From assembly GCA_030431635.1 (NCBI GenBank), contig JAUIIL010000004.1, forward strand, positions 248,001 through 312,000: a stretch of DNA of 64,000 bases, given 5' to 3'. The DNA comes from Bacteriovoracia bacterium (GTDB taxonomy: Bacteria > Bdellovibrionota > Bacteriovoracia > Bacteriovoracales > Bacteriovoracaceae). Every line of letters starts with the position of its first letter. Within the stretch, counting starts at the first letter, position 1. Made by a program: the position numbers and the translations under genes. The notes beneath the pieces are model-generated. The model ran no database searches. It saw only the letters and a list, made by a program, of their open reading frames with translations, and was not told the DNA's origin. Positions 46,550 through 48,772 of the stretch are shown piece by piece.

Positions 46550-47335
46550 ATGCTTAAAAAATACGTTTTTCTTTTCTTTTTATTTTCCTGTTCAAGTTTA
46601 AAACTACCACAAACTCAAGTGACTTATATTCATGGGGCCCATTTCAATTCTAAGTCCTGGAATGAGCTCAGAGATGAACTTGGGATAAAAAACTCAGTTG
46701 CAGTGAACCTCCCTGGTCGAGGAAACTTAGAGGACTACTCTTTTATTGATCTTAATCTCATGTCTTTGTCTCTGTGTGATCAGCTGTCTCTTTATGAAGC
46801 GGAACATGTTCTTATCGCACACTCTCAAGCAGGAGCAGTTGTTAATAATATGTTAAGTCTCTGTCCTTCTTTGAAAATAAAAAAGATTATCTACGTGAGT
46901 GCTGTCATTCCTTTTCCTGGGGAGAAACCTTTCGATCTGCTTTCAAAAGCAGATGAGAGAAATTATTTTCAAAGCGTAAAACTGAATAAGAAGAAAAAAC
47001 TTTTAGAAGTAAATGATCATGAGAAGTTTTTAGAGTTTTTTGCTCCTGAAGCTTTAGAAGAAAAGGACTTAAGAGAAGAGGTGCTAAAAAGCTTAACTAG
47101 TGAGCCGGCCAATATTTCTCAAGACCTTGTTCAGTATAGTCTTTCCGTCTTAAACTCTATTAAGAAATATTATGTCTTTACCACCCAAGATAAAATCGTC
47201 TCATTGGAATCTCAGAAAAAAACGGCCAGTCGTTTTCGTTTCGAAAAAACATTTCAAATTGAGTCCGGGCATTTACCTATGATAACTCATACAGATAGGC
47301 TTGAGGATATTATCGAAGAGATCTTAAAAAACTAA
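46550..47335 (+). CDS. Alpha/beta-hydrolase lipoprotein
   Basis: A 261-residue protein with a lipoprotein signal (VFLFFLFSC, lipid Cys near 14). The fold is alpha/beta hydrolase: YIHGAHFNSKSW (oxyanion region), nucleophile Ser in LIAHSQAGAVV, Asp in FTTQDKIVSLES and His in IESGHLPMITH, so the triad is complete. It resembles small esterase/lipase proteins of the RsbQ/salicylate-esterase style group. Substrate is unknown. A strong terminator follows 13 bases after the stop. Confidence 0.82.
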   Translation: MLKKYVFLFFLFSCSSLKLPQTQVTYIHGAHFNSKSWNELRDELGIKNSVAVNLPGRGNLEDYSFIDLNLMSLSLCDQLSLYEAEHVLIAHSQAGAVVNNMLSLCPSLKIKKIIYVSAVIPFPGEKPFDLLSKADERNYFQSVKLNKKKKLLEVNDHEKFLEFFAPEALEEKDLREEVLKSLTSEPANISQDLVQYSLSVLNSIKKYYVFTTQDKIVSLESQKKTASRFRFEKTFQIESGHLPMITHTDRLEDIIEEILKN

Positions 47336-47375: not shown

Positions 47376-47401
47376 GCACCATCAGGTCCCAAAAGGCATT
47401 T

Positions 47402-47466
47402 TGTCACCGACTTCTTTGCTGTGATTTTAAGGGGTTAGTGAATATTAAACTTGGCATGTGGCCTGC
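47402..47466 (+). promoter_or_regulatory. Sigma-54-type promoter and upstream dyad of RNA copy 1
   Basis: TGGCATGTGGCCTGCT (47452-47467) has GG and GC ten bases apart, two mismatches to the -24/-12 consensus. A dyad TCAC-N13-GTGA (47404-47424) lies centred about 39 bases upstream of the GG, a plausible activator site. Expected start near 47478. Confidence 0.65.
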
Positions 47467-47477
47467 TTATTAGTGTG

Positions 47478-47652
47478 GTAAGCAAGGCCAGAAGAGTAAA
47501 ATAATATTTGCTCTGGTCCGGGTTAAAGGAAAAAAGCTTTCTCACCCATCCACAAACTGGCCAACACCGAGTCATTTTGAATGAAAGGACTCTCCCACAC
47601 CCCATCACACACACATCTTAGAAAACTTTTTTATCTCCGGACCAGAGCAAAA
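47478..47652 (+). ncRNA. Structured RNA, copy 1 of a tandem pair, unrecognised family
   Basis: About 175 bases. A perfect 15-bp closing stem pairs 47507-47521 with 47637-47651. Next, 47532-47544 pairs with 47621-47633 at 12 of 13 positions by eye. An inner hairpin pairs GAGTC (47569-47573) with GACTC (47588-47592) and TTTT with GAAA around a GAAT loop. Between these lie C-rich unpaired strands (CTCACCCATC 47541-47550 and CTCTCCCACACCCC from 47590). GGCCAG (47486-47491), outside the stem, can pair with CTGGCC (47557-47562), a possible pseudoknot. No open reading frame is plausible. It may act like Qrr or CrcZ RNAs (also sigma-54 dependent), or be a 6S-like rod; I cannot place it. Confidence 0.75.
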
Positions 47653-47725
47653 ATTTTCTTCGTTTTTCAATGTAAAAGTTCCAATTTGACTCCCATTTTT
47701 TCCCAAAAAAAGACCAGTGTCTTTT

Positions 47726-47791
47726 TGTCACCGAGTCATTTAGTGTGATTTTAATAGGTTAAAAAGTATTTAAATTGGCACAGACCTTGCT
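47726..47791 (+). promoter_or_regulatory. Perfect sigma-54 promoter and upstream dyad of RNA copy 2
   Basis: TGGCACAGACCTTGCT (47776-47791) matches TGGCAC-N5-TTGCW exactly. The dyad TCAC-N13-GTGA (47728-47748) is at the same distance as in copy 1. Expected start near 47802. An inverted repeat GACCTTG (47783-47789) / CAAGGTC (47806-47812) overlaps the -12 element. Confidence 0.75.
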
Positions 47792-47801
47792 TTATATAAA
47801 G

Positions 47802-47973
47802 GTAACAAGGTCAGGAAGAGTATAAGTATTTGCTCTGGCCCGGGATAAGAAGATAGAGTTTTCTCACCCATCTACAACCTGACTAACCCCGAGTCATCTC
47901 GAAGGAGAGGACTCTCCCAAATCCTATCACCATTCATTTCTTGAAAGTTTTACTTCTTCGGGTCAGAGCAAAC
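47802..47973 (+). ncRNA. Structured RNA, copy 2 of a tandem pair, unrecognised family
   Basis: The closing stem pairs 47829-47842 with 47959-47972 (14 pairs, one G-U). AAGAAG then pairs with CTTCTT inside it. The inner hairpin pairs GAGTC (47891-47895) with GACTC (47910-47914) and TCTC with GAGA around GAAG. Compared with copy 1, the hairpin has U-A and U-G replaced by C-G pairs, and the closing stem has U-A replaced by C-G. The outer GGTCAG (47809-47814) still matches CTGACT (47879-47884). CTCACCCATC (47863-47872) is identical in both copies. The RNA ends 14 bases before the stop of a convergent lipoprotein gene, and I see no T-rich terminator. Confidence 0.75.
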
Positions 47974-47986
47974 TTATTTATTAAGC

Positions 47987-48772
47987 TTAGTCTCTTCTAA
48001 AAAGATTTCGAGGAAAGATTTTATCTTTTTTGTTTTCAATGAGCATCTCGTCCGGAGCACCAACACAGCCGGGGAGTTGGGTTGAAGATTCATAGCTCAC
48101 TTCAACAATATTATTAACTGGAATCCAATCTCCAAAGATTTCCTTCTTATCAGAGTTATACAGAGCAAGTTCAACTTGATAACGTCCCATGAGTTTTAAT
48201 CCTCCATTAAAATCTGGAGGAACAATTTTGTTAATTTCAGCAGGTCTATTGAGGGGGCGAGGTTTATCAGTTGTCAGAGAGTAATTACCAAAATCTCTAG
48301 GGATTATCTTAATATCATCAATGAGGAGGTTGTGGTTATAAGCAGGACAGTTGAAGTTTCTTAGGTTCGCCGAAATCATGGCCGCATAGTTAATTCTAAA
48401 AGAGATACTTTTCGTCTTAATAAAAGATTTTCCAAGACGAATATGTTGAGAGAAAAAAGGAGTATAGCTGTAACCAATATCTTCTCTACTGGCCCCACTA
48501 ACTCTGCGCACTCTCATAAGCCATGAGTTAACATGAAATTTTCGAGATAATGCTTCAGCCGACTCTTCTTTGATGGGATTAAGGCCAACTTCAACGAGGA
48601 AGCCTCTGGAAACTTCTTGAGTTCTAGATGGCCCAACTTTAATCTCTAAAATATCTGCTCTAATAATTTCAGCTTTGACATTATCAATAGTTGCTAATGA
48701 GTCGTTATCAGTAAAACCCGCGTATTTTTGGCACGACAAAAGAGTAAATAAAACAAGGAAAATAAGCTTCAT
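47987..48772 (-). CDS. Predicted lipoprotein, unknown function
   Basis: A 261-residue protein with a lipoprotein signal (IFLVLFTLLSC, lipid Cys near 14). The mature part is beta-rich, with LEIKVGPSR, FLVEVGLNPIKEE and GGLKLMGRYQVELALYN as strand-like segments and two further cysteines (NCPAYN, PGCVGAP). I recognise no family. It is transcribed towards the RNA pair and ends just beyond copy 2. Confidence 0.65.
   Translation of the reverse strand: MKLIFLVLFTLLSCQKYAGFTDNDSLATIDNVKAEIIRADILEIKVGPSRTQEVSRGFLVEVGLNPIKEESAEALSRKFHVNSWLMRVRRVSGASREDIGYSYTPFFSQHIRLGKSFIKTKSISFRINYAAMISANLRNFNCPAYNHNLLIDDIKIIPRDFGNYSLTTDKPRPLNRPAEINKIVPPDFNGGLKLMGRYQVELALYNSDKKEIFGDWIPVNNIVEVSYESSTQLPGCVGAPDEMLIENKKDKIFPRNLFRRD

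What the first reader, a model, noticed from the sequence alone, without database searches (positions are those of the whole stretch)
47402..47973. Two tandem structured RNAs of an unrecognised family
Two diverged 324-base units each hold a promoter and an RNA with the same fold: a 14-15 bp closing stem, an A/T-rich inner stem, a hairpin with a GAAN loop, and C-rich unpaired strands. Differences between copies keep the pairing (TTTT/GAAA against TCTC/GAGA in the hairpin, T-A against C-G in the closing stem). That is direct evidence of selection on RNA structure. I know no family with this layout; C-rich strands such as CTCTCCC could pair with ribosome binding sites.
Basis: partly seen in the sequence, partly recalled or inferred. 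Interest (0 to 1): 0.88.

Follow-up and report, generated by a model that had tools for sequence, protein, structure and literature searches.

The report
New structured RNA family in predatory bacteria
Two neighbouring stretches of this genome encode copies of a previously uncatalogued folded RNA, found in at least 26 genera of one predatory-bacterium family, always behind the same special type of promoter, and probably acting as a regulator that soaks up another molecule rather than coding for a protein.

Summary
In detail: two 322-nt direct repeats (72% identical) each encode a foldable RNA. The decisive evidence comes from relatives. A covariance model built from 15 other genomes, without the window, finds both copies independently (E 2e-7 and 2e-6). 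Members occur in at least 46 of 129 Bacteriovoracaceae genomes (26 genera), mostly in the interval before the EF-G gene. On 39 members, 92% of paired cells keep a standard pair, and covariation exceeds all 500 shuffles. All 39 have a sigma-54 -24/-12 promoter at the expected distance (9% by chance). No Rfam family matches.

The C-rich loops are real and nearly G-free, but their conserved word is UCCYACC, not the anti-Shine-Dalgarno CCUCC, which is absent from all 39. Ribosome-binding-site pairing is therefore unsupported. The most likely mechanism is a free-standing, sigma-54-controlled RNA that displays UCCYACC motifs to sequester an unknown RNA-binding protein; this is inferred, not shown. 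Copy 1 also carries a 20-bp match to the seed of a second conserved sigma-54 sRNA found here.

The parts
47399..47410 (+). copy 1: conserved upstream element TTTTGTCACCGA (candidate enhancer-binding-protein site)
   Evidence: Identical in copy 2. TCACCGA also upstream of the promoter in G087 and G136 and, inverted, in G073: 5 of 39 against 1% by chance.
47451..47466 (+). copy 1: sigma-54 -24/-12 promoter TTGGCATGTGGCCTGC (GG-N10-GC)
   Evidence: Sequence; equivalent element at the same distance in 39 of 39 family members, 9% by chance.
47478..47671 (+). copy 1: predicted transcript (start about 12 nt after the -12 GC, end at the T-rich stretch after the closing stem)
   Evidence: R3 match 47483-47657; ends inferred from promoter and U-rich tail, no transcript data.
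47486..47491 (+). copy 1: pseudoknot 5' strand GGCCAG (pairs with 47557-47562)
   Evidence: pairing kept in all 39 members.
47507..47521 (+). copy 1: closing stem P1, 5' strand (pairs with 47637-47651)
   Evidence: covariation.
47527..47542 (+). copy 1: inner stem P2, 5' strand (pairs with 47620-47636)
   Evidence: visible in copies 1 and 2 and in G087 only, not in the family consensus.
47557..47562 (+). copy 1: pseudoknot 3' strand CUGGCC
47569..47592 (+). copy 1: hairpin P3 with GAAU loop
   Evidence: GAAU invariant in the 15-sequence alignment A7.
47593..47619 (+). copy 1: G-free 3' loop strand with ACCCCAUCACACACACAUC, complementary to the GU-sRNA seed
   Evidence: Duplex -34.8 kcal/mol, 0 of 500 shuffles as good.
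47637..47651 (+). copy 1: closing stem P1, 3' strand
47723..47734 (+). copy 2: conserved upstream element TTTTGTCACCGA
47775..47790 (+). copy 2: sigma-54 promoter TTGGCACAGACCTTGC, exact match to the consensus searched
   Evidence: 8 exact matches in the genome; 57 with up to one mismatch against 9 for the reversed pattern.
47802..47985 (+). copy 2: predicted transcript
   Evidence: R3 match 47807-47978; ends inferred.
47809..47815 (+). copy 2: pseudoknot 5' strand GGUCAGG (pairs with 47878-47884 CCUGACU)
47829..47843 (+). copy 2: closing stem P1, 5' strand (pairs with 47958-47972)
47848..47863 (+). copy 2: inner stem P2, 5' strand (pairs with 47943-47957)
47878..47884 (+). copy 2: pseudoknot 3' strand
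47891..47914 (+). copy 2: hairpin P3 with GAAG loop
47915..47942 (+). copy 2: G-free 3' loop strand
47958..47972 (+). copy 2: closing stem P1, 3' strand
47987..48772 (-). convergent lipoprotein-like gene that follows the RNA (context, not part of it)
   Evidence: same neighbour in G087.

Best explanation
Each unit is an independent gene for a roughly 170-190-nt non-coding RNA. It is transcribed by sigma-54 RNA polymerase under an enhancer-binding protein. It folds into a closing stem (P1, which with a following U-rich stretch probably also ends transcription), a hairpin with a GAAU-type loop (P3), and a pseudoknot that ties the 5' end (GGUUGG) to the internal loop (CCAACC). This holds out two long, nearly G-free strands carrying UCCYACC-type motifs. 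SHOWN computationally: family, fold, pseudoknot, promoter type, conserved loop motif, conserved position. INFERRED: it acts in trans, most likely as a decoy whose repeated UCCYACC motifs sequester an RNA-binding protein when the sigma-54 signal is on, in the manner of the sigma-54-controlled decoy RNAs CrcZ/CrcY or GlmY. That a family member exists here is about 97% likely; the protein-decoy mechanism is about 40% likely.
For: A model built without the window finds both copies. 39 members: 92.1% of cells paired, covariation 0.501 against 0.175 in shuffles (0 of 500), slid structures at most 48%. Sigma-54 element in 39 of 39. Pseudoknot of 5-11 bp at the same place in 39 of 39. UCCYACC in the 5' loop of 27 of 39 (about 1 expected, at most 5 in 2000 shuffles) and in the 3' loop of 12 of 39 (0.4 expected, at most 3). 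Loops 6.5% G. The next gene is on the opposite strand in 25 of the 37 members with one in reach, so these RNAs are mostly free-standing. T-run after P1 in 27 of 39 against 15% by chance. Precedents for sigma-54-driven decoy RNAs: GlmY sequestering RapZ (PMC7073468); RpoN-dependent CrcZ/CrcY relieving Hfq-Crc repression (PMC6292655).
Against: No transcript data, no known protein partner, and no binding test. A conserved motif plus a pseudoknot could equally be an aptamer or a base-pairing platform. The window's own copies lack the exact UCCYACC word: copy 1 has CACCCAUCCACA in the 5' strand and CACACACAUCUU in the 3' strand, and copy 2 has CACCCAUCUACA. The detected family covers about a third of the genomes, so it is not essential to the whole group or is too diverged to see there.
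Confidence: 0.5

Rival explanations
1. Base-pairing small RNA: the C-rich strands pair with ribosome binding sites, or the 5' GGUUGG strand is a seed for mRNA targets, exposed when the pseudoknot opens.
For: Long unstructured G-poor strands suit pairing. The pseudoknot lies right behind the predicted 5' end, where many sRNA seeds lie (general knowledge).
Against: CCUCC absent from the loops of all 39 members. SD duplexes no better than with shuffled loops. The conserved A in UCCYACC interrupts pairing with AGGAGG. The second form (5' seed) was not tested.
Confidence: 0.15
2. Sponge for another sRNA: the RNA binds the 5' GUGUGUGUGUUGGGGUUA seed of the sigma-54-driven GU-sRNA found beside pal.
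For: 20 bp with one mismatch to the copy 1 3' loop, -34.8 kcal/mol, 0 of 500 shuffles. A seed-like pattern with up to 2 mismatches matched only that locus in the genome. The GU-sRNA is conserved. CACACA in the 3' loop of 10 of 39 members, 1.3 expected.
Against: Copy 2 pairs only weakly (19% of shuffles as good). Family-wide, only 10% of loops reach p<0.05 and the median p is 0.63. A pattern scan of the pal locus found no GU-sRNA in several genomes that have the RNA (G016, G063, G010, G078, G007, G002), though it could lie elsewhere. CA/GU repeats are low in complexity, and the match was noticed before it was tested.
Confidence: 0.13
3. Small-molecule-binding RNA (a free-standing aptamer or reservoir), like merRNA of Bdellovibrio.
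For: Pseudoknot plus conserved unpaired nucleotides. Precedent of a massively expressed c-di-GMP-aptamer RNA in Bdellovibrio (PMC3627812).
Against: No match to c-di-GMP or any other riboswitch model. Long, variable, G-free strands are unlike compact aptamers.
Confidence: 0.12
4. Cis-acting leader of the downstream gene.
For: In 12 of 37 members the next gene is on the same strand; 19 and 33 nt away in G128 and G006.
Against: Next gene on the opposite strand in 25 of 37, including the window. The downstream gene differs between genera. T-run after P1.
Confidence: 0.05
5. 6S-like RNA that binds RNA polymerase.
For: Closing stem, large internal loop and terminal hairpin are a superficially similar layout (inference).
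Against: No Rfam 6S match. The internal loop is C-rich, knotted by a pseudoknot, and not promoter-like.
Confidence: 0.03

Closest known systems
CrcZ / CrcY (Pseudomonas, Azotobacter)
   Same: Sigma-54 (RpoN)-dependent sRNAs, sometimes more than one per genome, acting as decoys for a translational repressor complex (PMC6292655).
   Different: No Rfam match. The repeated motif here is UCCYACC in G-poor loops, not the A-rich Crc/Hfq motif. A pseudoknotted fold is conserved here.
GlmY / GlmZ (enterobacteria)
   Same: Sigma-54-controlled structured sRNA; GlmY works by sequestering an RNA-binding protein (PMC7073468).
   Different: No Rfam match; no RapZ link tested; different fold.
Qrr sRNAs (Vibrio)
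   Same: Sigma-54-dependent, multiple copies (general knowledge).
   Different: Qrr are base-pairing sRNAs; no Rfam match here.
CsrB / RsmZ type decoys
   Same: Repeated short motif displayed by a structured RNA to titrate a protein (general knowledge).
   Different: CsrB-type RNAs use GGA in hairpin loops; the loops here are about 6% G and carry C-rich motifs.
merRNA and APsRNAs of Bdellovibrio bacteriovorus
   Same: Abundant non-coding RNAs of a predatory bacterium in the same phylum (PMC3627812).
   Different: merRNA contains a c-di-GMP riboswitch. Three of those sRNAs have a FliA motif. No family hit outside Bacteriovoracaceae was confirmed here.

Membership tests
The RNA family defined here (model R3) | Covariance-model match to relatives, model built without the window | tested here: met
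   Copies at E 2.3e-7 and 1.9e-6.
The RNA family defined here (model R3) | Sigma-54 -24/-12 element starting 22-39 nt upstream of the match | tested here: met
   39 of 39 members, both window copies included.
The RNA family defined here (model R3) | Leader-to-loop pseudoknot just before P3 | tested here: met
   39 of 39; GGCCAG/CUGGCC and GGUCAGG/CCUGACU in the window.
The RNA family defined here (model R3) | UCCYACC motif in the 5' loop (common, 27 of 39; not treated as a defining requirement) | tested here: not met
   The window copies carry diverged forms.
Any Rfam 15 family | Match at or above the gathering score | tested here: not met
   0 matches in the window; best sub-threshold match 19 bits against a cut-off of 50.
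CrcZ/CrcY | Sigma-54 promoter | tested here: met
   Sequence level only.
CrcZ/CrcY | A-rich Hfq/Crc-binding motifs | not tested
   The loops are C/A/U-rich, but Hfq binding was not examined.
CsrB/RsmZ | Multiple GGA motifs in hairpin loops | tested here: not met
   Loop G content 6.5%; the only conserved hairpin loop is GAAU-type.
Anti-Shine-Dalgarno (C-rich) sRNAs | CCUCC-type anti-SD motif in unpaired loops | tested here: not met
   0 of 39 in either loop, about 5 and 2 expected.
6S RNA | Match to the family model | tested here: not met
Protein-sequestering RNA (functional class) | Binds and titrates a protein in vivo | not testable with these tools
   Needs pull-down and genetics.

The most novel reading that the evidence does not exclude
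A previously unknown post-transcriptional switch in Bacteriovoracaceae: a sigma-54-induced pseudoknotted RNA that titrates an unidentified RNA-binding protein recognising UCCYACC, with copy 1 of this lineage additionally sponging a second conserved sigma-54 sRNA.
Probability: 0.3. Interest if true: 0.78.

Novelty: new variant of a known kind. Interest (0 to 1): 0.64.

Why it matters
Nothing was found in the papers searched on regulatory RNAs of Bacteriovoracaceae (the library is partial). Here is a strongly supported RNA family, absent from Rfam, with a defined promoter class, fold, pseudoknot and loop motif, in at least 26 genera. It gives a ready bait (UCCYACC loops) for finding an RNA-binding regulator, and a sigma-54 regulon containing at least two conserved sRNAs. 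It is a family worth depositing, and it makes testable whether these predators use decoy RNAs in their regulation.

Tried and rejected
DNA-level BLAST in 39 relatives gave only chance-level matches of about 20-35 nt outside the window's genome; homology is visible only with covariance models and gene order. The two-sequence model R1 found one homolog, G087. R2 found five more, but one of its weak hits (G141:C1, L200) was in fact the GU-sRNA. R3 hits outside the family (G185, G204, G213), in G106 and G116, and second hits in G010 and G062 lack a sigma-54 element at the expected place and were rejected. RBS pairing tested and not supported. GU-sRNA sponge tested: strong for copy 1, not family-wide. 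The idea that the RNA replaced the sigma-54-driven small secreted-protein gene that many genera have beside the same lipoprotein gene was considered and dropped: the shared neighbourhood of the RNA is the NifS-like-to-EF-G interval, and the protein gene exists elsewhere in G000 and G087. Rho-site mimicry and 16S-tail mimicry of the C-rich loops were considered, with no test that could decide; the CCUCC absence argues against the latter. No close relative was found with the neighbouring hydrolase in genome contigs, and viral contigs gave none with the lipoprotein.

Full report
WHAT IS THERE. The window lies in a Bacteriovoracaceae genome (Bdellovibrionota). Relatives that share the neighbouring lipoprotein gene carry titles such as 'Bacteriovoracaceae bacterium isolate new MAG-398' (the contig of G087) and 'Bacteriovorax sp. 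DB6_IX'. Between a small alpha/beta-hydrolase-like gene (46550-47335 +) and a convergent lipoprotein-like gene (47987-48772 -) there are two direct repeats with a 322-nt period. No ORF of 80 aa or more lies in the repeats.

PROMOTER. Each repeat has a GG-N10-GC sigma-54 element. In copy 2 it is one of only 8 exact TTGGCACN5TTGC sites in the genome; with up to one mismatch there are 57 sites against 9 for the reversed pattern, so sigma-54 promoters are in real use in this genome.

HOMOLOGS. A two-sequence model (R1) found one homolog among 129 family genomes, G087, in the same place before the lipoprotein gene and EF-G. Adding it (R2) revealed G128, G006, G098, G022 and G084. G128, G006 and G022 have the RNA in the same interval between a NifS-like gene and the (-) gene that precedes EF-G, and in G098 it lies about 2 kb from the same (-) gene. 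Sixty of these intervals were fetched and scanned for sigma-54 plus stem plus GAAN hairpin plus pseudoknot, which uncovered the family proper. Fifteen members, none from the window, gave alignment A7 and model R3. R3 recovers both window copies at E 2.3e-7 and 1.9e-6 and G087 at 1.7e-6; this is the independent test of homology. In the phylum search R3 matched 49 of 369 genomes at E<=0.01. The three outside the family and two inside it (G106, G116) were inspected and rejected for lack of a sigma-54 element at the expected place. With G000 and G087 that leaves at least 46 of 129 family genomes in 26 genera; the weakest accepted ones were inspected, and several mid-scoring ones (E 1e-12 to 1e-21) were not examined one by one. 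G020 also has a tandem pair and G084 has two copies on different contigs.

STRUCTURE. On A7, 89.6% of cells pair against 75.5% in shuffles and at most 51% when slid, and the covariation score exceeds all 500 shuffles. On 39 members (A8) the figures are 92.1% paired, covariation 0.501 against 0.175, and 19 of 24 pairs with two-sided changes. A8 is fitted to P1 and P3 and so leans towards them, but the pseudoknot was not in the model. The pseudoknot joins the leader, GGUUGG in most, to CCAACC 3-12 nt before hairpin P3 in all 39. Because GGUUGG itself is well conserved, most of its covariation comes from the divergent members, which keep the pairing with other sequences: GGCCAG/CUGGCC and GGUCAGG/CCUGACU in the window, UGGCCGG/CCGGCCG in G010, GAUUGGCC/GGCCAAUC in G093, GUUGAAGA/UCUUCAAC in G084. 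Inner stem P2 is seen in copies 1 and 2 and in G087 only. The mean folding z-score of the 39 is -3.2 against mononucleotide shuffles.

TRANSCRIPTION UNIT. All 39 have the sigma-54 element, ending about 10-16 nt before the model start in most, so the transcript should begin within a few nucleotides of the pseudoknot strand; random stretches have such an element in 9%. A run of four or more T follows P1 in 27 of 39 (15% by chance), so P1 probably doubles as terminator. Candidate enhancer sites upstream are TCACCGA (5 of 39, 1% by chance) and GGCCAAAA (11 of 39, 4% by chance). The next gene is on the opposite strand in 25 of 37, so it is mostly a free-standing RNA gene.

LOOPS. The strands left open contain 6.5% G. 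UCCYACC occurs in the 5' loop of 27 of 39 (expected about 1) and in the 3' loop of 12 of 39 (expected 0.4). CCUCC occurs in none, and SD duplexes are not better than with shuffled loops. Relatedness of the members inflates such counts, but the genera are diverged enough that stems have changed sequence. So a specific word is under selection, and it is not an anti-SD. Several motifs per molecule, held open by a pseudoknotted frame, fit a protein-titrating RNA best. This step is inference. Sigma-54-controlled decoy RNAs exist elsewhere (GlmY, PMC7073468; CrcZ/CrcY, PMC6292655). The word itself is diverged in the window copies.

A SECOND sRNA. Another sigma-54 site, divergent from pal (G000:C9:52768), starts a roughly 100-nt RNA, 5'-GGUGUGUGUGUGUUGGGGUUAUAAG..., with a strong terminator. 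It is strikingly conserved at the pal locus of G087 and six other genomes checked, and occurs at another place in G141; it is not in Rfam. Its seed pairs with the copy 1 3' loop over 20 bp with one mismatch; copy 2 and most relatives do not show this. It is a good lead for copy 1 only.

KNOWN OR NOT. No Rfam family matches. The papers searched describe attack-phase sRNAs in Bdellovibrio, and nothing of this kind was found for Bacteriovoracaceae (partial library). I therefore rate it a new family of a known general kind, sigma-54-dependent structured regulatory RNA.

Noticed in passing
G000:C9:52768-52885 (L043:3768-3885); homologs in L049, L180, L182, L185, L187, L191, L192, L193, L200: A highly conserved sigma-54-driven sRNA of about 100 nt with a GUGUGUGUGUUGGRGUUA 5' seed, a UUCUCCUUAUGUCUCUCG segment and a terminator, usually divergent from pal (elsewhere in G141). 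Not in Rfam.
   Followed up: partly
L083, L092, L094, L095, L097, L106 and many of L112-L168; G000:C3:164066-164356; G087:C14:24636-24971: A conserved sigma-54-driven gene for a secreted protein of about 112 aa ending GHE(I/M)TYPL.C, usually convergent with the lipoprotein gene homologous to window 47987-48772.
   Followed up: partly
G000:C2:173458 (L029) and G000:C14:136756 (L019): Sigma-54 transcripts with several GGA-containing stretches near the 5' end (possible CsrA-type leaders); L029 also has an ACCGAG upstream element similar to the RNA genes.
   Followed up: no
L018:713-868 (-) and L049:712-850 (-): Sub-threshold Rfam match to the CpoB/ybgF thermometer in the cpoB-pal region of both genomes (33-35 bits, cut-off 51).
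   Followed up: no
L282:126-284 and 436-592 (G020): An independent tandem pair of the RNA in another genus, about 310 nt apart.
   Followed up: partly
L332 (G003:C55:71757-71879): A divergent member with a sigma-54 element in which GGUUGGG appears to pair with CCCAACC at the 3' end instead of in the loop.
   Followed up: no
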